From assembly GCF_007750855.1 (NCBI RefSeq), contig NZ_CP036291.1, forward strand, positions 1,736,001 through 1,800,000: a stretch of 64,000 nucleotides of DNA, in the 5' to 3' direction. Within the stretch, counting starts at the first letter, position 1. Each line of letters begins with the position of its first letter. Shown piece after piece: positions 16,702 through 27,257 of this stretch. The stretch is from Pirellulimonas nuda. GTDB taxonomy: Bacteria; Planctomycetota; Planctomycetia; Pirellulales; Lacipirellulaceae. The notes beneath the pieces were generated by a model, which saw only the letters and a list, made by a program, of their open reading frames with translations, did not search any database and was not told the DNA's origin. Both the position numbers and the translations under genes were made by a program.

Positions 16702-19700
16702 CTACTCTGCGGGAGAGAGCGTCTGCGAGAGCGACTTCTGCACCCACTCAAGCCAGGCCTTGGTCGGGAGCCCGTAGGGGCGGAACTTCTCGATCTGCCC
16801 CGTCTCGTCGCTGTAGAACAACGCCCGGAACGCCCGCAGCCTTGCCGCGGCCGGGGTGTCGAGCAGGTTGCTCGAGTCGGCGGCCGACATCTGGAAGGCG
16901 ATCCGCATGCCGAACTCGCGGAGGGTCATGCGGTCGGTGATCCGGCCGACCGTGTTGTAGCTGTCGCACCAGACCAGGGCGTGAACGCCGAGGCCGGGGC
17001 CCGACCTGAGCAGCTCAGCGAACTGCTTGTCGGGGCTGGCCGGCTTGTCGCGATCGGAAGAGAAGCTGAAGTCGTCTTCGCTGCGTCGCAGTTCGCGCAG
17101 GCGGCCGGCGTTCCAGACGATCAAGAACAGCGGCGGGGCGTGGTCTTCGTTCGCCTCGTCGCGACGCGCAGCCTCAGACGCGACGGACGCCAGCGCTTCG
17201 GTGGTCTGCCCCGCGTCGTACCGCTGCAGCCGATCGCCGAGCGCGGCGGCGACGGCGGGCCAAACCGCCGCGGCGCCATCGTCGGCCCGCGTGCCGTCTA
17301 GCACTACCACACGCGCCTCGGGGTGGCTGGCGGCGAGCGCCACGGCCGCGGCCGAGAGGATGCCGGCGGCCTCGGCCTCGTTGGGTCCGACCATCAGCAG
17401 GTTGGCGCCGGCGTGGCGGCCGAACTCGGCCCGCGTGGGGGGTTTGATGGCGATGGCGTCGCCCAGCCACGCTTGCGGGACGGCGACGGGGCGGAGCCCG
17501 TCAGCAAGCTGAGCTTGCTGAGTGAGCAGGGTGGTGAGCTGCTTGTTCTCTTGCGGGTCGGCGGGGGCGGCGCCCTCGAAGACAATGGTGGGTGGGACCT
17601 CGACCCCGCGGCGCTCCCGCTCGGCCTGGGCCAGGGCCAGCCAGTCGATCCGCTGCGCGTCGGGGAGCCACACCACCTGGAACGGCTCGTTGGCGGCCAG
17701 CAGGCCGTTCTGGTCGTTGTAGATGGCTTCGCCAGGGCGGCGCAAGTAGCGGGCGGCCGTGTTGCGTTCGTCGCTGAGGATCAGGTGGGCGTCCGCCTCG
17801 CTCGACTGCAGCGCCACCCGCACCGCGATCTGCCCCAGCGTGCTGCGGGCGATGGAGTAGGCGCCCGAGAGCGTTTGTGTCCCCAAGATTACGTGCATCC
17901 CAAACGCGCGACCTTGCCGCACGAGGCGGTCAAGCAGCAACTGGGCGTCTTGCGCCAGACGGTCGTCTTCCACGAACAATTCTTGAAACTCATCGATCAC
18001 CAGCAGGATGCGCGGCATCGGATCGTCGGGGCGTGCGGCGCGGTAGTCGGCTAAGCCCTGCACCGCGACCTCGCGGTACAGCTCGCCGCGGCGCTTGAGC
18101 TCTTCGTCGAGGCGCTCCAAGACGCTGAGGCCAAACTCGCGTTCGCTCTCGATCGCCACCACGCGGGCGTGCGGCAGCCGGCCGTAGGCGTAGGCCTGGA
18201 ACTCGACCCCCTTCTTGAAGTCGACCAAGTAGAACTCCAGCTCGTCCGGCGTGAACCGCAGCGCGGCGCTGGTCACTAGCGCGTGCAGGAACGTGCTCTT
18301 GCCGGAGCCGGTCTTCCCCGCAACCAACAGGTGGTGGGCGGCGCCCTTGCCCAGCCGCACGTACTGCAGCCGGTTGGCGCCGGCGCGGCCGACGGGGATT
18401 AGCAGCTCGTCGCTGCAGACGTCTTCCCACAAGTGATCGGGGTCCGGGGCGACGATGCTGAAGGGCGCCTCGACCTTGATCGCCCCCTTGGCCGCCTGGC
18501 CCGCGCGGCGGATGGCGTCGACCATCAGCTCACCCGGGGGCGAACCGGCGACCGCCAACGGGAACTTCTCGAACACAGGCTGTCGCCACGTCAGACGCTC
18601 CGCCTGCGGCAGCCATTCCAGCAGCACGGCGTCTTCGGTCAGGTCGCCCAGGCGGAAGTCGCTGGGGAAGCGGGCGGTCCGGTCGATGCTCGCCAGCACG
18701 TACACTCCGCACCGCGGGCCCCCCGAGACGATGCTGATCAGCCGCCTGACGGCCGTGTCGGAGAACGCGTGCGGGAAGCCCGCGATCACCACCACCTGCA
18801 GCGGCTCGGCCACCTCGCCGGCCTGGGCGTTGTACTCGTGGATCGTGGCGTACTCGTCCCGCAGGAACTTCTGGATCACCGTCTCCATGTGGTTGGTGAC
18901 CCGGGCGAGCTGCTCGTCGATGTCGCGCGGCTCGGCCCAGATGCGGCCGGCGATCAGGTTGTCGTCGTAGTCGGCCAGGTGCATGAACGCGGCGAAGCTC
19001 TCGCCCAAGCCGGTGGGGTCGAGCAGCGTGAACCGCACCTTGCCGGCCGGCAGGCCCGTGAGGAACCGGAACGCCACGGTCTGGACCAGCTCGGCCGCGA
19101 CTGCGCGGCCGGCTCCCTCGGCCAGGACAAACAGCGACGGCTGTTCGTTCAGCGTGACCAGCGCGGGAACCTCGATCTGATTGGTCGGCGGCGCCAGGCG
19201 CGGGTCTTCGGGGAGCGCGTGCTTTACGCGGGCCAGATCGATCGTGACCCGGCCAAACTCTACCGCGGGGATCATCTGCTGCGTCGGACGCCACGCGTCG
19301 AGGTCGATCGCTTCCCAGTCGGCCGGGAAGTGGGCGTCGCACACGGACCGCTCGGCCGCGAACGCCTCGTGGATCTCGGCGACGCCCGACAACCAAGCCT
19401 CGGCCATGGCGGCCCAGTCGCGGTCGTGCGTTGCATTGATCTCGGCGATCGCCGTGTCGCGCTGCGCCGCGCTCGCCGCGGCGTCTGCGTCCCGCTGGGC
19501 GGTCGCCCGGCCGAGCGCTTCGGCGAGCTCGGCGTCGAGCCGCGAGCCGCCCGACTCGCGCTCGGCGCGCAGGGTCTCAAGCCGGTGCGGGTACGACCGG
19601 CCGGCGCGGACCAGCTCTTGCTCCACCTGGGCGGTCACGCCATCGATGCGGCTCTTGACTTCGAAGCCGACGGCGGCCAGCTCTGCGTCGCGCGTATCCA

Positions 19701-20643
19701 CCAGCGACTGCGCTTCCTCCTGCTCGCGGAGCAGCGCGGCGGCCCGGTACGTTTGGATCGCGCTGCGGGCGTCGGCAAGGGCCGACGCGATGCCGTCGAA
19801 CGCCTCGGCGCCGGCGGCGCGAGACTTGGGCCAAGCCAGCAGCCGCAGCAGGGCGCCGCTCGCCACGAGCGCGCCGACGGCCGCCCCCCAAGCAAACGGG
19901 CTGACGGGTCCGGCCCGCCAAGCGGCGAGGGCGTAGTTGCACAGCGCCACGCCGCCGACCAGCACCCATGGCGTGGCGCCCTCAAACAGGCGGGGCAACT
20001 TCTGGGCGTAGAGCGCCTCAACACGCCGCCGCGCCTCGGCGGCCGTCGCCTCGGCCCGCTGCTGAACCGCTTCCACCGCCGGCGTGTCGGCCGGCTGGGG
20101 CGGGGAGGGCGTTGTCAACTTGCTGACGTCGGTCGCGCTGGAGAACTGGCGCCGCGACTTGAGGATGGCGACCGTGTCGCCGGCGAGCGCTTCGAGGCTC
20201 CGCCACGCCGCCCCCAGGGGCGCCAGCGCCTGCTCCCGCCTCTGGGCCGGCTCGTCCTTGCGGGCCTCGTAGATGCTGAGGGTCTCGAACGCCACGCGAC
20301 GCTGCAGCTCGAGCGCCTCGGCCTCGGTTGCGCCGCGCTGCGTTTCAGCCGCGGAACGGACGCCGTGGTACTCCGCCTGTACCGCTTCGCGACGGGCGTT
20401 GAGATCCTTGTCGAGTTCCGCGACCGCCGCGGCGTGTCGCGATTCGGCCTCGTTGGTCGTGGCGGCGTGGGCCCGCACGATCGCGTCGGCCTCGCGACGG
20501 AATCGCTCGTGGGCGAGCCGTGTTTCGGACGACTGCGCGATCGCGATCCGCTGCTCGGCCTCGTGACGATCGGTGGCGAGCCGCTGCAGGCGCGCGAGCA
20601 GCGCTGCTTGACGTTGGGTCGAGAGTTCGGGCGCCGCGGCCAT
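16702..20643 (-). CDS. FtsK/SpoIIIE (EccC-like) membrane ATPase of a WXG100 operon
   Basis: This 1313-residue protein has an N-terminal coiled coil (about 1-180), two membrane helices (about 218-240 and 247-268), a second coiled coil (about 280-400), and then a mixed domain before the motor. The first ATPase domain has Walker A GKTGSGKSTF (near 775) and Walker B ILLVIDEFQELF (near 882), with the GTQTLSG segment typical of FtsK/EccC. A second P-loop-like domain (near 1084, GPNEAEAAG) is degenerate. In type VII secretion such an ATPase drives export of WXG100 proteins. Here it closes an operon with a WXG100-like gene. A role in DNA translocation cannot be excluded, but the gamma DNA-reading domain of FtsK is not apparent. 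A palindrome half copy is translated near residue 1045. Confidence 0.85.
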   Translation of the reverse strand: MAAAPELSTQRQAALLARLQRLATDRHEAEQRIAIAQSSETRLAHERFRREADAIVRAHAATTNEAESRHAAAVAELDKDLNARREAVQAEYHGVRSAAETQRGATEAEALELQRRVAFETLSIYEARKDEPAQRREQALAPLGAAWRSLEALAGDTVAILKSRRQFSSATDVSKLTTPSPPQPADTPAVEAVQQRAEATAAEARRRVEALYAQKLPRLFEGATPWVLVGGVALCNYALAAWRAGPVSPFAWGAAVGALVASGALLRLLAWPKSRAAGAEAFDGIASALADARSAIQTYRAAALLREQEEAQSLVDTRDAELAAVGFEVKSRIDGVTAQVEQELVRAGRSYPHRLETLRAERESGGSRLDAELAEALGRATAQRDADAAASAAQRDTAIAEINATHDRDWAAMAEAWLSGVAEIHEAFAAERSVCDAHFPADWEAIDLDAWRPTQQMIPAVEFGRVTIDLARVKHALPEDPRLAPPTNQIEVPALVTLNEQPSLFVLAEGAGRAVAAELVQTVAFRFLTGLPAGKVRFTLLDPTGLGESFAAFMHLADYDDNLIAGRIWAEPRDIDEQLARVTNHMETVIQKFLRDEYATIHEYNAQAGEVAEPLQVVVIAGFPHAFSDTAVRRLISIVSGGPRCGVYVLASIDRTARFPSDFRLGDLTEDAVLLEWLPQAERLTWRQPVFEKFPLAVAGSPPGELMVDAIRRAGQAAKGAIKVEAPFSIVAPDPDHLWEDVCSDELLIPVGRAGANRLQYVRLGKGAAHHLLVAGKTGSGKSTFLHALVTSAALRFTPDELEFYLVDFKKGVEFQAYAYGRLPHARVVAIESEREFGLSVLERLDEELKRRGELYREVAVQGLADYRAARPDDPMPRILLVIDEFQELFVEDDRLAQDAQLLLDRLVRQGRAFGMHVILGTQTLSGAYSIARSTLGQIAVRVALQSSEADAHLILSDERNTAARYLRRPGEAIYNDQNGLLAANEPFQVVWLPDAQRIDWLALAQAERERRGVEVPPTIVFEGAAPADPQENKQLTTLLTQQAQLADGLRPVAVPQAWLGDAIAIKPPTRAEFGRHAGANLLMVGPNEAEAAGILSAAAVALAASHPEARVVVLDGTRADDGAAAVWPAVAAALGDRLQRYDAGQTTEALASVASEAARRDEANEDHAPPLFLIVWNAGRLRELRRSEDDFSFSSDRDKPASPDKQFAELLRSGPGLGVHALVWCDSYNTVGRITDRMTLREFGMRIAFQMSAADSSNLLDTPAAARLRAFRALFYSDETGQIEKFRPYGLPTKAWLEWVQKSLSQTLSPAE
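17485..17520. repeat. Palindrome half-copy inside the FtsK-like gene
   Basis: GACGGGGCGGAGCCCGTC followed by an inverted CAGCAAGCT/AGCTTGCTG pair matches the intergenic repeat family at 12027 and 16525. It is translated in frame as ADGLRPVAV between the two ATPase-like domains, so it has become a linker. Confidence 0.7.
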
Positions 20644-20702
20644 GCCTACCCTGGGTCACGAGTGCGAGGACTGGTTCCCACTAAGGATAGCGGATTATCG
20701 GG

Positions 20703-20927
20703 CTATTGGTCTGCATCGCGTTGCGCCTCGCCGGCGATCAGGGCGAGCCTGCCGATCGCGTCGAGCGTCCCCTTAATCACCGGGGCCATCGGCTCGATCC
20801 GGTCCTCAAACACCGCCCGGCTTACCGGGTCGTTCCAATCTGCCGACGCGGACTCGTACGCCAGCAGCAGGTCTTCGTACGCCTGGCGGATGCGGCCGGC
20901 GCCCGTTTCTAGATCAACGCGTCTCAC
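20703..20927 (-). CDS. Small helical WXG-like protein
   Basis: This 74-residue protein is predicted by eye to be two helices joined near the central Trp-Asn-Asp (residues 31-33), recalling the helix-turn-helix of WXG100 proteins, though it is shorter and the Gly is Asp. Its ATG overlaps the stop of the 179-residue gene (ATGA, 20924-20927), and it ends 59 bases before the FtsK-like gene. It is probably a partner or substrate of the same system. There is no signal peptide. The family is not recognised. Confidence 0.7.
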   Translation of the reverse strand: MRRVDLETGAGRIRQAYEDLLLAYESASADWNDPVSRAVFEDRIEPMAPVIKGTLDAIGRLALIAGEAQRDADQ

Positions 20928-21463
20928 GTGGGCTCCTCGCTTATCGGTCCTGGCGCCTCGGAGGGGGCGGCAGCCGGCGGAGCCGACGCGCGGCCCGAGG
21001 CGTACCGGCTAAGGCTCGCCAGCACCCGGTCGAGCGCCGCCACGGCCGCGGGCGCCTCGACGTCGGCAAGCTGCTTGAGGCTGTTGACCCGTCCCCGGTA
21101 TTCGTCCAGCTCGTGCTGCAGGTCGCGCACCCACTCGCGCAGACGCTGGAACTTGGCCTCGCAATACGCCTGCCGTTGCTCGGCCCGGCGGAGCGCCTTC
21201 CGCTGCTCGACGCACGCCGGACGCTCGTCCGCGACGGGGTACATGAGCTTGCGGTTGAGCTCGGCCCGGGCCTGGGCGACCTCGTCCCAGCTACGTCGCA
21301 ACTGCTCGCGCCAGTAGCCGGGGCGGTCGTGCTCGATCCAGTCCAGCAGCCGCCTGAGTTCCGTCTCGATCTCATCGAGGCCCAACCTTACCTGATCGGC
21401 AAAGTTGACCGCCGCGGCCCGCACCGCCAGGATCGCATCGGTCGAGCGGACGTTGGCCGACAT
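20924..21463 (-). CDS. Coiled-coil protein of the WXG100 operon
   Basis: The 179-residue product is almost wholly helical: heptad-rich segments run from about residue 20 to 150, with several Trp (for example GYWREQLRRSWDEV), and a Pro/Ala/Ser-rich disordered tail follows. No signal peptide or membrane helix is present. I do not recognise a characterised family. Its position between the WXG100-like gene and the 74-residue gene, with translational overlap to the latter, suggests a structural, chaperone or substrate role in the same complex. Confidence 0.75.
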   Translation of the reverse strand: MSANVRSTDAILAVRAAAVNFADQVRLGLDEIETELRRLLDWIEHDRPGYWREQLRRSWDEVAQARAELNRKLMYPVADERPACVEQRKALRRAEQRQAYCEAKFQRLREWVRDLQHELDEYRGRVNSLKQLADVEAPAAVAALDRVLASLSRYASGRASAPPAAAPSEAPGPISEEPT

Positions 21464-21471
21464 AGGGGCGA

Positions 21472-21547
21472 GGGGTTAGGGGCGAGAGGCGTGGACGTTG
21501 CGCGCGGAGAGTCCGAACATTGCTTGCGCGTTCTCGCCCCTCACCTC
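21472..21547. repeat. Hairpin at the 3' end of the WXG100-like gene
   Basis: Arms GGGGTTAGGGGCGAGA (21472-21487) and TCTCGCCCCTCACCTC (21532-21547) pair at about 13 of 16 positions. The right arm overlaps the last codons of the WXG100-like gene. In mRNA this could stabilise or attenuate the transcript between the first and second genes of the operon. Confidence 0.55.
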
Positions 21548-21813
21548 TGCTGCAGGTACTCGTCGATGCGGTCTGCCTTGCGGAGCAGGAACGGCGCATG
21601 GTCGTTCGTCGATTCAACGTAGCGCGCGATCGCCTTGGTTTGTTCCTCGAAGTCCTCGACAAACTTCTTGTGCTCCTGGTCACGCCAGGTGGCGCTCAGG
21701 GCATGGAGCTGCGCGCTCAGCGCGCCCATCCGCTCCTCCAACTCCTGATTGAACTTGCGCAGGTTGTTGGCGAAGCGCCGAAGCTCGGCCGGGTCAACGA
21801 TGGCTTGCGACAT
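21541..21813 (-). CDS. WXG100-family-like protein
   Basis: The 90-residue product matches the WXG100/ESAT-6 plan: about 100 residues, no signal peptide, two helices (about 8-40 and 46-85), and a central turn with Trp43 in the motif W-R-D. The Gly of WXG is Asp here, which is tolerated in the family. The canonical C-terminal YxxxD/E export signal is not evident. It is the first gene of the operon with a possible SD (AAGGGG, seven bases before the ATG). In type VII systems such proteins are exported dimers or chaperones. Downstream genes encode two helical proteins and the FtsK-like ATPase. Confidence 0.8.
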   Translation of the reverse strand: MSQAIVDPAELRRFANNLRKFNQELEERMGALSAQLHALSATWRDQEHKKFVEDFEEQTKAIARYVESTNDHAPFLLRKADRIDEYLQQR

Positions 21814-21941: not shown

Positions 21942-24900
21942 CTATCGGGCGGTCGCCGACGCCGTGGCGGCTTTCGACGCGCGTCCGGCCGACTCGCCGG
22001 TTGCCTCTTCGTAGCACTCCACCAACAAGGCCGCCGCCTGGCGGATCTGGTCTTCGGTGTGGAGCGCGTTGATGAAGAACCGCAGGCGGGCGCGTTCCTC
22101 TTCGACGGCGGGGTGCAGGATCGGCTGCACGTTGACGCCGCGGGCGAACATCATCCTCGAGAGCCGGATCGCCAGGATCGAGTTGCCGGTAATGATCGGC
22201 ACGATCGGCGTGCCGCCGCTCATCCCGGTGTTCAGCCCCGCTTGCTTCGCCAGCGACAGGAACAGCTCGGAGTTACGCCGGAGCCGCTCTACACGCTGGG
22301 GCTCGGCCAGCAGCAGTTGCAACGCTTTCAGGGCCGCCGCGGTGTCGGGTGGCGAGAGGCCCGTGCTGAACACGAAGCCGGGGGCGGTGTACTTGAGGTA
22401 GCGGATCATCTCGGCGCTGCCGGCGATGTAGCCGCCGCTCGACCCGAGCCCCTTCGACAGGGTCCCCATCCAGATGTCGACGTCCCCGGGGCTGAGGTCG
22501 GCGTACTCGGACATCCCCAGGCCGCGCTCGCCCATGGTCCCCAGCGAGTGGGCCTCGTCGACGTACAGGTTGCACTGGTGCTCGTTCTTCAGTTCGACGA
22601 ACTTGCGGATGTCGCAGAAGTCGCCGTCCATGCTGTAGACCCCCTCGACGGCGATCAGCACGCGGCGGTACTCGCCGCGGTAGCGCTCGAGCAGCTCGGC
22701 GCACGCTTGATGGTCGTTGTGGGGGAAGGCCCGGCGGAGCGCGCCGGAGAGGCGGGCGCCCTGCACGATGCTGTTGTGGGCCAGCGAGTCGTGCAGCACC
22801 AGGTCGCCTGGGCCGAACAAGTGCCCGATCACCGTCTCGTTGGTGGCGTGCCCGCCGACCATCGCGATCGCGTCTTCTGCGTGCAACGTCTTGGAGATCA
22901 GTTGCTCAAGCTCGAGGTGGATTGTCTTTTCGCCCGAGACGAGCCGGCTCGCAGAAACGCTGGTGCCGAAGCGGTCGACCGCTGCTTTGGTCGCCGTGGC
23001 GACGGCGGGGTCCCCAGACATGCCGAGGTAGTTGAAGCTGCTGAAATTGATGTACTCGCGGCCGCCGATCAGGGCGGTGTCGTTCGTCAGGCCTTCGTGC
23101 ACCGTGAAGTAGGGGTTGCCGAAACCGGCCCCTTCGGCCATCCGGATGCTCTCTGCCAGACGCTGGTACTCCGGGCTTTCCGCGAAGTTGTAGTCGCCGG
23201 GAAGCACCTGACGGGCCGTGGGCTTCGTGGCGTCGGGCGAGACGAGGTGCTGCTCGACCGCGCGAACCACGTCGCGGCAGGTCTCCATCCCCAAGATGGC
23301 TTCTTCCGGGAATCGCCCGCCGAAGTCGTCTTCCAACGCGGCGACAATCTCCATCCGCTCAAGCGAGTCGAGCCCGAGCGACGGGATATCGGAGTCGAGC
23401 GTCAGCCCGGCGGAGCGTTCCTTGGCCACCGCCCGAACCGTCGCCAACACGCGGTCGACAATGTCGGTGCGCTCGGTCGCGGCTGGGGCCTTGCGCGGGG
23501 GCTGGCCGTTCGTGTCGGCGGTCGCCGCCGGCGGGGCGGGGGGGGTGGGTTCGGTCGCATCGGCGTCGGCCGCGGCGCGACGTCGGCCGTGCACCGTGAC
23601 GCCCCCCGTGGCGGACCATTCGGCGGACACCGAAAGCGTCCCGTCCAGGTACGCCTGGCGGCACGCGTGCCGCTGGATCTTTCCGCTGGAGGTCTTCGGG
23701 ATGGAGTTGGGCTTGATCAACACAATCGCGGCGGGCGCCACGTCGTGCATCTCAGAGATCGCCTTGCGGACCGCGGTGAACACTTCCTCGATGTCGATCC
23801 GCCGGTCGCGGCCCGCTTCGTGCACCAGCACCAGCTTCTCGCGGCCATCCTCACCGACGGTGAACGCGGCCCCGCTCGAGGGGGGGAGGTACGGGTGGGC
23901 GTGCTCGACCGTCAGCTCCAGGTCCTGCGGGTAGTGATTGGCGCCGTTGATGATGATCAGGTCTTTCAGCCGGCCGCTGATGAACAGCTCGTCGCCGTCC
24001 AGGAATCCAAGGTCGCCGGTGCGGAGGAACGGCCCGCGGCCCGACGCGGTGGTGGCGGCGAAGGTTTCGCGCGACAGCTCGTCGCGGCGCCAGTAGCCCT
24101 GCGCTACGCTCGGGCCGGCAACCCACACCTCGCCGACGATCCGCTCGGGCTGCTCCTCGTGCGTCTCCGGGTCGACGATCGCCACGCGCTGACCGGTGGA
24201 AGTGACGCCAGAGCTAACGACGGTGAGCGCCGCCCCGCCTGTCGAGTCGGCCATCGAGCGGGCGACGCCCTGCTTCATGGCTTCGGCGTCGTACGACCGC
24301 ACCACCGGCTCGCTGTACTTATCGGACGCGGTCACCATCAGCGTCGATTCGGCCAAACCGTAGCAGGTGAGGAAGCCCCGGGACTGGAAGCCGGCCACGG
24401 CAAACTTGCGGCTGAACTTCTCCATCGTCTCGGCCCGCACCGGCTCCGCGCCGTTGAAGGCGACGGACCATTGGCTCAGGTCGAGCGTTGCCGCTTCTTC
24501 GTCGCTGATGCGCTCGGCGGCGAGCTCGTAGGCGAAGTTCGGCCCGCCGCTGATTACCGCCCCGGTGTCCGACACCGCCTTGAGCCACCGAAGCGGCTTC
24601 TGCAGGAAGTGCGTCGGCGTCATCAGCGTGTTGGGCCGCGCAAAGTAGATCGGCTGGATCACGCCGCCGATCAGCCCCATGTCGTGGTACAGCGGCAGCC
24701 AGGTGACCCCTTGGCCGCTGGTGGTCGGTTTGAAGGCGTCGGAGATGTACTTCGTGTTGCTCAGCAGGTTGCCGTGGCTGAGCATGACCCCCTTCGGCGT
24801 GCCGGTGGAGCCGGACGTGTACTGCAGGAACGCAAGCGTGTCGGGCGTGACCCGCGTGCGACGCCATTTGTCTCCGATGCTGACGTCGAGCTTGTCGGTG

Positions 24901-25412
24901 CTGATCCAGGGCACGTCCAGCAGCGCCGGCTGGTCGTGGATCATGGGCTCGATCCGCGCCCACGCTTCTGCGGTGGTCAGCGCCACCTTCGGAGAGGCGT
25001 CTTTCAGGATCGACTGGATGCGCGTCAGGTTGCGGTTGCGACGCGGCGGGTAGGCCGGCACGGCCACCACGCCGGCGTACAGGCAGCCGAAGAACGCCGC
25101 GATGAAATCGAGCCCCGACGGGTAGAGCAGCAGCGCGCGCTCACCGGCCAGGTTGCGGCCCTGCAGCTCCGTGGCCACGGCGCGCGCCTTCGCGTCGAGC
25201 TGGCCGTAGTTGATGTGTTGGCGCTGCGTCTCGCCATCCACGAGGAAAGTAAAGGCGCGCTCGCCCGGGTAGCGGGTAGCGCGTTCCCGCAGCAACGACA
25301 CCAGGTCGGGGGCGTCGCTTGGGATGGTCAGCGGTTCAAAGCCTTGCCAAGTCACGCCGGTCCAAACTCCAGGGAAGGCTGGGCAGAAAGGTTGCGGAGC
25401 GTCGAAAAGCAT
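21942..25412 (-). CDS. Fatty acyl-AMP ligase / ACP / alpha-oxoamine synthase fusion
   Basis: This 1156-residue protein joins three catalytic units. The N-terminal 565 residues are a FAAL-type adenylating enzyme (P-loop YTSGSTGTPKGVMLSH, then LPLYHDMGLIGG and FFRTGDLG-like LRTGDLGFLDG). An acyl carrier protein follows at about 630-720 with the phosphopantetheine Ser in LGLDSLERM (near 681). The last 400 residues are a PLP alpha-oxoamine synthase (KBL/SPT/BioF family) with YVDEAHSLG and the PLP Lys in GTLSKGLGSSGG (near 987). It likely activates a fatty acid, loads it on its own ACP and condenses it with an amino acid to a 3-ketoalkylamine, as in sphingolipid or sulfonolipid synthesis. The amino-acid substrate is not readable. 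Start 25412 is chosen; 25454 is also open. Confidence 0.88.
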   Translation of the reverse strand: MLFDAPQPFCPAFPGVWTGVTWQGFEPLTIPSDAPDLVSLLRERATRYPGERAFTFLVDGETQRQHINYGQLDAKARAVATELQGRNLAGERALLLYPSGLDFIAAFFGCLYAGVVAVPAYPPRRNRNLTRIQSILKDASPKVALTTAEAWARIEPMIHDQPALLDVPWISTDKLDVSIGDKWRRTRVTPDTLAFLQYTSGSTGTPKGVMLSHGNLLSNTKYISDAFKPTTSGQGVTWLPLYHDMGLIGGVIQPIYFARPNTLMTPTHFLQKPLRWLKAVSDTGAVISGGPNFAYELAAERISDEEAATLDLSQWSVAFNGAEPVRAETMEKFSRKFAVAGFQSRGFLTCYGLAESTLMVTASDKYSEPVVRSYDAEAMKQGVARSMADSTGGAALTVVSSGVTSTGQRVAIVDPETHEEQPERIVGEVWVAGPSVAQGYWRRDELSRETFAATTASGRGPFLRTGDLGFLDGDELFISGRLKDLIIINGANHYPQDLELTVEHAHPYLPPSSGAAFTVGEDGREKLVLVHEAGRDRRIDIEEVFTAVRKAISEMHDVAPAAIVLIKPNSIPKTSSGKIQRHACRQAYLDGTLSVSAEWSATGGVTVHGRRRAAADADATEPTPPAPPAATADTNGQPPRKAPAATERTDIVDRVLATVRAVAKERSAGLTLDSDIPSLGLDSLERMEIVAALEDDFGGRFPEEAILGMETCRDVVRAVEQHLVSPDATKPTARQVLPGDYNFAESPEYQRLAESIRMAEGAGFGNPYFTVHEGLTNDTALIGGREYINFSSFNYLGMSGDPAVATATKAAVDRFGTSVSASRLVSGEKTIHLELEQLISKTLHAEDAIAMVGGHATNETVIGHLFGPGDLVLHDSLAHNSIVQGARLSGALRRAFPHNDHQACAELLERYRGEYRRVLIAVEGVYSMDGDFCDIRKFVELKNEHQCNLYVDEAHSLGTMGERGLGMSEYADLSPGDVDIWMGTLSKGLGSSGGYIAGSAEMIRYLKYTAPGFVFSTGLSPPDTAAALKALQLLLAEPQRVERLRRNSELFLSLAKQAGLNTGMSGGTPIVPIITGNSILAIRLSRMMFARGVNVQPILHPAVEEERARLRFFINALHTEDQIRQAAALLVECYEEATGESAGRASKAATASATAR

Positions 25413-25640
25413 GCGGTGCTCGACAGGTCTTATTAAAATGGAATGACTGGGCAATTTCTAGCGCCGAATCGCCGAACTGGTCAGAAAGTCGCCCAGACGC
25501 CGGCCTTACCCATATCGTCGCCTGCCGCCGGCGGGCCACGCCCGAAGGGCTTTGCGGCACGGTTGCGCCGGTTGCGGGGGGTTTGCCCCTGGTGCGGGTA
25601 GGCGCTCGAACGGCCATGGTTCGGGCCTAGAAACGCAATC

Positions 25641-25715: not shown

Positions 25716-27257
25716 TTAGAACCGCACCTCAACACCGACGTCGACGCCATTCATAAAGATCGTTTGCTCCCCACCCTGCTTCAGCCCGATGTAGGGGAGG
25801 TAGTAGTCCACCACCTGCGAAGAGCGGGTGATGCTGTCGATGTAGGTCGCCGTGTACCCGGCGTTGATCGAGACCGCGTTGGTTAGCTGATAGCCAACCT
25901 GGGCGCGAAGCTCCACCAGCGGCGAGAAGTCTTCGTCCTGCCGGCCGTACCGCGAGTAGTGCGGCTGGGCGATCAGCGAGTTGTTCAGGCCGCCCGGCAG
26001 GGCGTCCTCGCCGACGCCGTTGGTCTGATCCAGGTCCTGGATGTTCCAGCCGAACATGAACCGGGCGTCGAGGTCGGTGCGCCACTTGGCTTGCTGGTAC
26101 ACCCACTTCAGGCGTAGCTGCGGTCCAACCAACTGGTTCTCCGTCCGCGTGTTGCTGAAGATGCGTCCCATCAGGTCGGTGCGGCCGTCGAAGCTGAACT
26201 CGTCTTCCATGCGGAAGAAGCGGACGCCGTAGCCAACCTCAAAGTGCTGGTTCTGGTGCTTCTGCATGTGGTGGCGGTTGCCCAGCCGGTGCGATCGCAT
26301 GATCTCCACGCTGTTGACGTTCGTCACGTTCCGCACCTGAAGGAAGTCAAACCGCAGGTTGAACGAGTGGAGGTCGCCGTAGTCGATCGCGGTGGCGTCG
26401 GCGATGCCGTCGCCGTTGGTGTCTACCACGAAGAAGGTGCCGCCGTTGAAGTTCGTGTCGTCGATGATGCCGTCGCCCGTGCCGCTGGGGCCGTTGTTGG
26501 TGGCGTCGACGCCGAACGGGATCACCTCAACGAAGATGCCGGGCAGCCCGGGCACCGGGAAGAACCCTGGCACGCCGTCCTGCAGGTCCGCCGCGTCGGC
26601 GTAGTCACGCCAGCCTTGGAGGAACCGTTCCGGAGTGCGGAAGTTGACGTGTACGCTCCCGAACCCGTTCAGGCTCTCGAAGACGATCGGGTTGTCCGGA
26701 TCGGAGAAGTCGTCGGGCGGCACGAAGCCATAGGTCTCGTGCGTCTGCCACTCTTGCTGGTCGAGGAACGTGAACGACCAGGCGACGTCGTCCTGCACGT
26801 AGCCAATCTCGTAGCGTTCGCCGGCCGAGAAGTCGGCCCCTGGCGGGGCGTCGTTGATGTCGTTCTGGATCGTGTAGGTAGGCACCGTGGTCGTCTCGTC
26901 GTCGACCAACGCGTCCGGGATGAAGTCGATCGGCTGGTTCGGCGGGGTGGGGTTGATCGGATCGCGGTGCGTCAGATTGCGGAAGATCTGTTCTGACTGA
27001 TAGGTCAGCCCCGCTTCGCCGATGGTGGTCTTCACGCCGTTCATCGCCCAATAGGTGCGGGAGATGCTGCCGTAGAAGCCCTGGTCGGAGTAGTTGCCCA
27101 TCTGGCCGTCGAGGTCGATGTCGACCGGTTCGAACCACTCGTAGTTGGGCTCGCTGTAAAACGGCTCCGTGATCATCTCTTCGGCGTACGCCGCGAGAGG
27201 GAAGGCTGTCACGGACGCCAAGGCGGCCAAGATTAAACGGAGTCGAGTGGGGGACAT
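25716..27257 (-). CDS. BBP7-like outer-membrane beta-barrel protein
   Basis: The 513-residue protein has a signal peptide ending near AYAEE, long stretches of alternating polar/hydrophobic residues with many aromatics, and a terminal Phe (GVDVGVEVRF), all typical of outer-membrane barrels. It resembles the planctomycete BBP7 family. A loop with DTNGDGIADATAIDYGD looks calcium-binding. Function is unknown; pore or surface protein is the usual guess. It stands alone, with a terminator downstream and a long gap upstream. Confidence 0.78.
   Translation of the reverse strand: MSPTRLRLILAALASVTAFPLAAYAEEMITEPFYSEPNYEWFEPVDIDLDGQMGNYSDQGFYGSISRTYWAMNGVKTTIGEAGLTYQSEQIFRNLTHRDPINPTPPNQPIDFIPDALVDDETTTVPTYTIQNDINDAPPGADFSAGERYEIGYVQDDVAWSFTFLDQQEWQTHETYGFVPPDDFSDPDNPIVFESLNGFGSVHVNFRTPERFLQGWRDYADAADLQDGVPGFFPVPGLPGIFVEVIPFGVDATNNGPSGTGDGIIDDTNFNGGTFFVVDTNGDGIADATAIDYGDLHSFNLRFDFLQVRNVTNVNSVEIMRSHRLGNRHHMQKHQNQHFEVGYGVRFFRMEDEFSFDGRTDLMGRIFSNTRTENQLVGPQLRLKWVYQQAKWRTDLDARFMFGWNIQDLDQTNGVGEDALPGGLNNSLIAQPHYSRYGRQDEDFSPLVELRAQVGYQLTNAVSINAGYTATYIDSITRSSQVVDYYLPYIGLKQGGEQTIFMNGVDVGVEVRF

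What the first reader, a model, noticed from the sequence alone, without database searches (positions are those of the whole stretch)
16702..21813. Minimal WXG100/FtsK four-gene operon: a type VII-like secretion system in a Gram-negative planctomycete
A WXG100-like 90-residue gene (Trp43 in W-R-D) starts an operon with a coiled-coil protein, a 74-residue helical hairpin protein (W-N-D) and a 1313-residue FtsK/EccC-like membrane ATPase. The other type VII core proteins (EccB, EccD, EccE, EsaA, EssB, mycosin) are absent, so a core of ATPase plus WXG-type protein may be sufficient, or partners lie elsewhere. In a two-membrane cell, what such a system exports and how it crosses the outer membrane is not obvious. 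Both small proteins carry W-x-D in place of W-x-G. Related WXG100 proteins have been annotated in planctomycetes, so novelty lies in the operon composition and the function.
Basis: partly seen in the sequence, partly recalled or inferred. Interest (0 to 1): 0.78.

Follow-up and report, generated by a model that had tools for sequence, protein, structure and literature searches.

The report
Four-gene type VII-like module in planctomycetes
This planctomycete carries four genes (a WXG100 protein, a long helical hairpin protein, a tiny second hairpin and a membrane-anchored ATPase) that are kept or lost together across the phylum, even where they are scattered around the chromosome, which suggests one conserved machine related to Gram-positive type VII secretion whose substrate is still unknown.

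Summary
The four genes are real and lie on the minus strand (21813 to 16702). The 90-aa protein is a true WXG100 (PF06013, over cut-off), with W-R-D invariant in 42 of 42 relatives; its nearest solved structure is Helicobacter pylori HP0062, also W-R-D. The 74-aa protein is probably a second, divergent WXG hairpin. The 179-aa protein is modelled as a long helical hairpin. The ATPase has a membrane hairpin, one active FtsK-type domain and EccC-like tandem architecture, and is not a chromosomal FtsK. No EccB, YukD or YukC was found in the genome.

In 294 planctomycete genomes the four families are found in 41, 41, 40 and 38, all four together in 38, even where the genes are dispersed over one chromosome. 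So the functional unit in planctomycetes is four genes, not two.

A WXG plus FtsK 'minimal type VII' pair in Gram-negatives is already published (H. pylori; a 2012 footnote names planctomycetes). New here: the chromosomal, apparently vertically inherited, toxin-free four-gene version, and that its second gene sits in the slot that holds polymorphic toxins in plasmid relatives. Best reading: an inner-membrane translocase exporting helical protein complexes. Export is inferred, not shown.

The parts
21541..21813 (-). WXG100 protein, 90 aa (P0001), W43-R44-D45; C-terminal 20 residues are the most conserved region
   Evidence: PF06013 42.4 bits; 42 relatives, 23 invariant columns; entropy by region; HP0062 match 5e-10
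20924..21463 (-). 179-aa protein (P0002): long helical hairpin (helices 6-74 and 85-155) with conserved P82-x-C84 loop and short variable disordered tail; the slot that carries toxins in plasmid relatives
   Evidence: 44 relatives; AlphaFold pLDDT 89.6; similarity to a Rhodococcus plasmid protein, 0 of 500 shuffles reach it
20703..20927 (-). 74-aa protein (P0003), probable second WXG-like hairpin with W31-x-D33
   Evidence: 44 relatives, W31 and D33 invariant; hhalign to WXG100 family P=1.2e-4; best PDB profile match EsxA, E=0.012; 6 of 44 members hit PF06013
20924..20927 (-). GTGA stop/start overlap between P0002 and P0003 (likely translational coupling)
   Evidence: sequence
16702..20643 (-). 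1313-aa EccC-like membrane ATPase (P0004)
   Evidence: PF01580 1.4e-34; EccCa model 116 bits versus FtsK 25 bits; Foldseek top EccC 2.4e-32; tree
19837..19977 (-). predicted transmembrane hairpin of the ATPase (residues 223-269), with long charged, presumably coiled-coil stretches on either side
   Evidence: hydropathy in the window protein and in relatives at the same place
18604..19113 (-). first alpha/beta domain of the ATPase (residues 511-680), no Walker A; taken as a degenerate ATPase domain by inference
   Evidence: alignment, model secondary structure
18295..18318 (-). Walker A GKTGSGKS (residues 776-783), the only one in the protein, present in 45/45 relatives
17989..18006 (-). Walker B LLVIDE (residues 880-885); the DEFQE motif is present in 44/45
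16726..17493 (-). C-terminal degenerate ATPase domain (residues 1051-1306), best single-domain match EssC D3
   Evidence: VIA-align Z 18.4 to 6tv1

Best explanation
It is one functional module of four proteins: a membrane-anchored EccC-like ATPase, probably oligomeric, plus three small helical proteins. The WXG100 protein (P0001) and the second W-x-D hairpin (P0003) probably act as partners or adaptors, and the long hairpin protein P0002 sits in the position of a cargo carrier. The conserved C-terminal tail of P0001 is proposed to dock on the degenerate C-terminal domain of the ATPase, as EsxB does on EccC (from general knowledge), and to switch on the single active ATPase domain, which moves the helical complex across the inner membrane. 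Shown: the genes, families, fold, membrane hairpin, single active site, four-gene co-inheritance, absence of three canonical partners. Inferred: oligomerisation, partner pairing, docking, export, and P0002 as cargo. How anything would cross the outer membrane is unknown.
For: Co-inheritance: ATPase 41, WXG100 41, P0003 40, P0002 38 of the same 294 genomes, all four in 38; in G164 the four genes lie at 0.23, 0.71, 1.94 and 2.66 Mb of one contig and are still all kept. In 60 relatives P0001 and P0003 are found in the same 47 genomes, all of which have the ATPase. Order conserved in 47 of 54 named loci with enough upstream DNA, including Pirellulales, Singulisphaera, Limnoglobus and Phycisphaerales records. 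ATPase scores EccCa 116 bits, FtsK 25, Foldseek EccC first, C-terminal domain closest to EssC D3. C-terminal 20 residues of P0001 have the lowest entropy, 0.56 against 1.1-1.4 in the helices. Plasmid relatives with homologous ATPase and WXG100 carry, in P0002's slot, a WHH nuclease followed by a SUKH immunity protein in one case, as polymorphic-toxin delivery systems do.
Against: No export has been tested. YukD, YukC and EccB, which belong to the membrane complex of known systems, are absent. P0002 has no toxin domain in nearly all planctomycetes and no significant fold match. The ATPases of the plasmid relatives have no clear membrane hairpin, so some relatives may not export anything. No second WXG100 and no LXG protein was found in this genome. 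The YxxxD/E export motif is not present at the C-terminus of P0001. One genome (G166) has only WXG100 and a shorter ATPase.
Confidence: 0.55

Rival explanations
1. A non-secretory role: a membrane-anchored ATPase regulated by WXG-like proteins that works inside the cell, for example in a stress or phage response or on DNA, like the TerY-P-linked relatives.
For: The Caballeronia plasmid relative sits with VWA, kinase, PP2C, a Card1-like nuclease and a helicase, and the literature links such clusters to stress response or suicidal restriction (PMC4978471). Plasmid ATPases lack a clear membrane hairpin. Canonical partners are missing.
Against: The planctomycete version has a conserved membrane hairpin and none of the kinase, phosphatase or helicase neighbours in its conserved unit; flanks vary between families outside the four genes.
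Confidence: 0.22
2. An interbacterial toxin delivery system whose toxins are encoded elsewhere or are unrecognised.
For: A homologous plasmid system carries a WHH nuclease with SUKH immunity; P0002 relatives in two Phycisphaerae-type genomes carry an Imm33-like immunity domain (PF24719, 1.4e-14 and 5.7e-13).
Against: No variable toxin or immunity gene in the conserved unit; mostly one copy per genome, inheritance that tracks FtsK (Mantel r=0.82, 0 of 5000); very conserved WXG100 (75% mean column identity); no LXG or other WXG100 protein in the genome.
Confidence: 0.15
3. A chromosomal FtsK/SpoIIIE-type DNA translocase with unrelated small neighbours.
For: Same ATPase superfamily; single-domain structural alignment to the FtsK motor has the highest Z (29.3).
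Against: The genome has a separate FtsK-type protein in a 952-aa frame; the tree puts FtsK in its own clade (97/81, joined 100/99 with a T4SS-like row) apart from these ATPases (93/87 with the plasmid relatives); no FtsK gamma domain match; all-or-none inheritance with three small proteins.
Confidence: 0.03

Closest known systems
H. pylori HP0062/HP0066 'WXG100 secretion system' and the WXG + FtsK pair of TerY-P clusters
   Same: WXG100 with W-R-D in the bend; closest solved structure (3fx7, 2gts); FtsK-type ATPase of the same clade in a Helicobacter plasmid; published as a minimal type VII set (PMC4978471, PMC3397514)
   Different: The Helicobacter plasmid version has a nuclease toxin and immunity gene between the WXG100 and the ATPase, and its ATPase is shorter with no clear membrane hairpin. 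The planctomycete version is toxin-free and widespread in the phylum
'Mobile versions of T7SS': solo WXG plus YueA-like ATPase with three HerA/FtsK domains, only the middle one active (Zhang et al. 2012, PMC3482391, Table 1 footnote 6)
   Same: Planctomycetes are named there; one Walker A per protein, in the middle domain
   Different: Here it looks not mobile: chromosomal, distances track FtsK; two further co-inherited genes are not mentioned in the footnote
T7SSa (ESX) and T7SSb (Ess/Yuk)
   Same: WXG100 plus membrane ATPase with tandem FtsK-like domains; EccC is the top Foldseek hit
   Different: No EccB, YukD/EccD or YukC/EssB found; W-x-D instead of W-x-G; one active domain; diderm host; P0002 has no T7SS counterpart by sequence
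T7SSc to T7SSj (Garrett et al. 2024, PMC11217815)
   Same: Divergent systems that share mainly WXG100 and the ATPase
   Different: All in Bacillota or Actinomycetota, most with a YukD-like protein and accessory proteins

Membership tests
Type VII secretion system (T7SSa/b) | WXG100 family protein | tested here: met
   PF06013 42.4 bits, cut-off 27.3
Type VII secretion system (T7SSa/b) | W-x-G motif in the bend | tested here: not met
   W-R-D in 42 of 42 relatives
Type VII secretion system (T7SSa/b) | EccC/EssC-type tandem ATPase | tested here: inconclusive
   EccC is top Foldseek hit and best NCBIfam model, but at 116 bits against an equivalog cut-off of 509; tree places it outside EccC/EssC with long branches
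Type VII secretion system (T7SSa/b) | N-terminal membrane hairpin on the ATPase | tested here: met
   hydropathy, residues 223-269, same place in relatives
Type VII secretion system (T7SSa/b) | YukD/EccD, YukC/EssB or EccB partners | tested here: not met
   genome-wide searches, no match over cut-off
Type VII secretion system (T7SSa/b) | YxxxD/E export motif at the C-terminus of a substrate | tested here: not met
   Y86 is invariant in P0001 but followed by LQQR in the window protein; no such motif in the P0003 consensus
Type VII secretion system (T7SSa/b) | ATPase-dependent export of the WXG100 protein | not testable with these tools
   needs an experiment
Solo-WXG / YueA-like ATPase group (Zhang 2012; HP0062/HP0066) | single WXG100 gene in the genome beside an FtsK-type ATPase | tested here: met
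   one PF06013 match in the genome
Solo-WXG / YueA-like ATPase group (Zhang 2012; HP0062/HP0066) | ATPase with one active domain in the middle of three | tested here: met
   one Walker A in 45 of 45; C-terminal domain like EssC D3; that the first domain is ATPase-like is inference only
Solo-WXG / YueA-like ATPase group (Zhang 2012; HP0062/HP0066) | same clade as ATPases of Gram-negative WXG loci | tested here: met
   tree 93/87 with five plasmid ATPases; WXG100 of Caballeronia and Helicobacter plasmids match at 2e-23 and 1e-14
Solo-WXG / YueA-like ATPase group (Zhang 2012; HP0062/HP0066) | mobile | tested here: not met
   ATPase and FtsK distances correlate over 20 genomes of one order, r=0.82, 0 of 5000 permutations
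FtsK/SpoIIIE chromosomal translocase | groups with FtsK | tested here: not met
   separate clades; FtsK model 25 bits against a cut-off of 1566

The most novel reading that the evidence does not exclude
Planctomycetes have a housekeeping, vertically inherited, toxin-free type VII-like machine of only four proteins in a two-membrane cell, derived from or ancestral to mobile toxin-delivery systems, in which the toxin-carrier slot has become a structural or signalling hairpin protein exported to the envelope.
Probability: 0.35. Interest if true: 0.78.

Novelty: new variant of a known kind. Interest (0 to 1): 0.62.

Why it matters
Type VII secretion is studied almost only in Gram-positive phyla. 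A small set of four proteins that is kept or lost together across a diderm phylum would give a simple system for asking what the ATPase and WXG100 core can do without EccB, EccD or YukC, and whether WXG machines have ordinary cell functions apart from toxin delivery. Named isolates carry it (Singulisphaera acidiphila, Limnoglobus roseus, Aeoliella straminimaris), so it is testable.

Tried and rejected
Chromosomal FtsK: rejected by tree, model scores and a separate FtsK gene. P0002 as a T3SS SPAM/YscO protein: the Pfam hit (4.3e-5) is below cut-off, shared by 3 of 44 members and mixed with other coiled-coil families, so taken as coiled-coil noise. P0002 fold search: no match with E under 0.06. 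P0002 against the WXG100 family by hhalign: no relation. PADLOC: only FtsK/HerA-type hits to the ATPase domain. Viral contigs: no relative found with a close-range query. Sampling Burkholderiales genomes was not possible with the tool. Homology of P0002 to the slot-2 proteins of Helicobacter and of Rhodococcus R79 is not supported by sequence, only by gene position. Complex (multimer) models could not be run.

Full report
The finding holds up as an observation. Four genes run on the minus strand from 21813 to 16702: a 90-aa WXG100 protein (P0001), a 179-aa protein (P0002), a 74-aa protein starting with GTG and overlapping the gene before by four bases (P0003), and a 1313-aa ATPase (P0004). Enolase lies downstream and an acyl-AMP ligase/carrier/aminotransferase fusion upstream.

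P0001 is a WXG100 protein by Pfam (42.4 bits, cut-off 27.3). In 42 relatives the bend is always W-R-D, and 23 of 90 columns are invariant. Its closest solved structure is HP0062 of Helicobacter pylori (profile E=5.1e-10), which also has W-R-D (PMC3397514). The last 20 residues are the most conserved part (mean entropy 0.56, helices 1.1-1.4).

P0003 gives no Pfam match by itself, but 6 of 44 family members match PF06013 weakly (best 2.2e-4), the family aligns with the WXG100 family around the W-x-D bend (P=1.2e-4, probability 55%), and its best PDB profile match is EsxA (E=0.012). W31 and D33 are invariant. I take it as a probable, not proven, second WXG-like hairpin.

P0002 is modelled with high confidence as two helices of about 70 residues joined by a loop holding a conserved P-x-C, then a disordered tail (pLDDT 89.6). 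It has no significant fold match. In most planctomycetes nothing recognisable follows the hairpin.

P0004 has a predicted membrane hairpin at residues 223-269, conserved in place, between long charged segments that I take for coiled coils. All 45 proteins compared have exactly one Walker A motif. NCBIfam scores EccCa 116 bits and FtsK 25, both under their cut-offs. Foldseek on the modelled residues 452-1313 (pLDDT 84.5) puts EccC first (2.4e-32) and FtsK later (3.7e-15). By VIA-align the active domain alone fits FtsK motors best (Z 29.3) with EccC ATPases 2-3 tied (Z 28.5 over 495 residues), and the C-terminal domain fits EssC D3 (Z 18.4). A tree of the active domain separates these ATPases, with five plasmid relatives (93/87), from the planctomycete FtsKs (97/81; 100/99 with one T4SS-like row); the link to EccC/EssC is unresolved because of long branches.

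The strongest result is co-inheritance. In 294 genomes spread over the phylum the ATPase is found in 41, PF06013 in 41, P0003 in 40 and P0002 in 38; all four occur together in 38 and the union is 42. The hypergeometric values (about 1e-44 to 1e-49) ignore shared ancestry and are only descriptive. What counts more is that absence is all-or-none in separate places: within one family (f21) one genus of five genomes lacks all four while other genera keep all; in the own family a 92%-complete genome (G029) lacks the ATPase, P0001 and P0003; in family f2 one genus has them and another lacks them. The few mismatches are a fragmented genome (G276), a genome with WXG100 and a 1006-aa ATPase only (G166), one where P0002 was missed by the wide search but found locally (G319), and one weak WXG100 hit (G087).

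Linkage is not needed for this. Of 54 named loci with at least 2.5 kb upstream of the ATPase, 47 have all four genes and 7 have only the ATPase. In family f21 the genes are often dispersed: in G164 they lie at 0.23, 0.71, 1.94 and 2.66 Mb of a single contig; in G083 at 2.50, 4.30 (P0002 with P0003) and 5.92 Mb. Gene neighbours outside the four vary between families. ATPase and FtsK distances over 20 genomes of the order correlate (r=0.82, 0 of 5000 permutations), which argues for mostly vertical inheritance there.

Outside the phylum, five plasmids carry clear relatives of the ATPase. WXG100 relatives lie beside four of them (Caballeronia 2e-23, Helicobacter 1e-14, Rhodococcus AH-ZY2 4e-10, Deinococcus 1e-8), all with W-x-D. 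In the Helicobacter plasmid the gene after the WXG100 encodes a protein ending in a WHH nuclease and the next a SUKH immunity protein. The Rhodococcus AH-ZY2 protein in this slot resembles P0002 over the region with the conserved Cys (18.3 bits; 0 of 500 heptad-preserving shuffles reach it), Deinococcus and Caballeronia weakly so (0 and 1 of 500), the other two not. Two Phycisphaerae-type P0002 proteins carry a C-terminal Imm33-like domain. This suggests that P0002 occupies a cargo-carrier slot that in planctomycetes has mostly lost, or never had, a toxin.

Mechanism. I propose that the membrane ATPase is a translocase, that P0001 and P0003 form a hairpin pair or an adaptor with P0002, and that the conserved P0001 tail docks on the degenerate C-terminal domain and turns on the active one, by analogy with EsxB and EccC (general knowledge of those systems). 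Only the parts list, fold, single active site and co-inheritance are shown. Export, pairing and docking are inferred. The missing YukD, YukC and EccB and the absence of other WXG100 or LXG proteins in the genome leave both the pore and the substrate open.

Prior knowledge. Zhang et al. 2012 (PMC3482391) already mention planctomycetes among lineages with solo WXG domains and a distinct ATPase with only the middle domain active. A WXG + FtsK minimal type VII set is described for H. pylori (PMC4978471). A 2023 review says such Gram-negative pairs have not been confirmed as secretion systems (PMC10765036). The eight further T7SS subtypes of 2024 are all Gram-positive (PMC11217815). I found no paper on the four-gene unit, but the library lacks most subscription journals, including Sutcliffe 2011. 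Verdict: a new variant of a known kind, with a strong all-or-none genetic signature and an untested function.

Noticed in passing
window 21942-25454 (-): A fusion of AMP-binding (acyl ligase), phosphopantetheine carrier and class I/II aminotransferase domains lies directly upstream of the operon on the same strand; its family is found in 17 loci, next to the operon in the own taxonomic family. Possibly a lipid biosynthesis enzyme.
   Followed up: partly
window 25716-27257 (-): A putative beta-barrel porin (BBP7, PF07585) sits two genes upstream on the same strand, syntenic in about 12 loci of the own family but not seen there in other families; a weak candidate outer-membrane partner.
   Followed up: partly
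L231 (Caballeronia plasmid pSBC2-5) 5849-19284: A related WXG100/ATPase set embedded in a cluster with VWA proteins, PP2C, a kinase, a Card1-like CARF nuclease and a helicase: a TerY-P-type conflict cluster.
   Followed up: partly
L157 3258-4319 and L169 3200-4267: P0002 relatives in two planctomycete genomes (one titled Phycisphaerales) fused to an Imm33-like immunity domain, an odd place for an immunity domain.
   Followed up: partly
L234 8351-8779 and L235 11457-12068: In the Deinococcus and Rhodococcus R79 plasmids the ATPase has no clear membrane hairpin, but a small neighbouring protein ends in a strong transmembrane segment; the anchor may be a separate subunit there and fused in planctomycetes.
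   Followed up: partly
L256 (G166 7879000-7886000): A 9.5 Mb planctomycete genome with WXG100 directly followed by a shorter 1006-aa ATPase and no detectable P0002 or P0003: a possible two-gene version.
   Followed up: no
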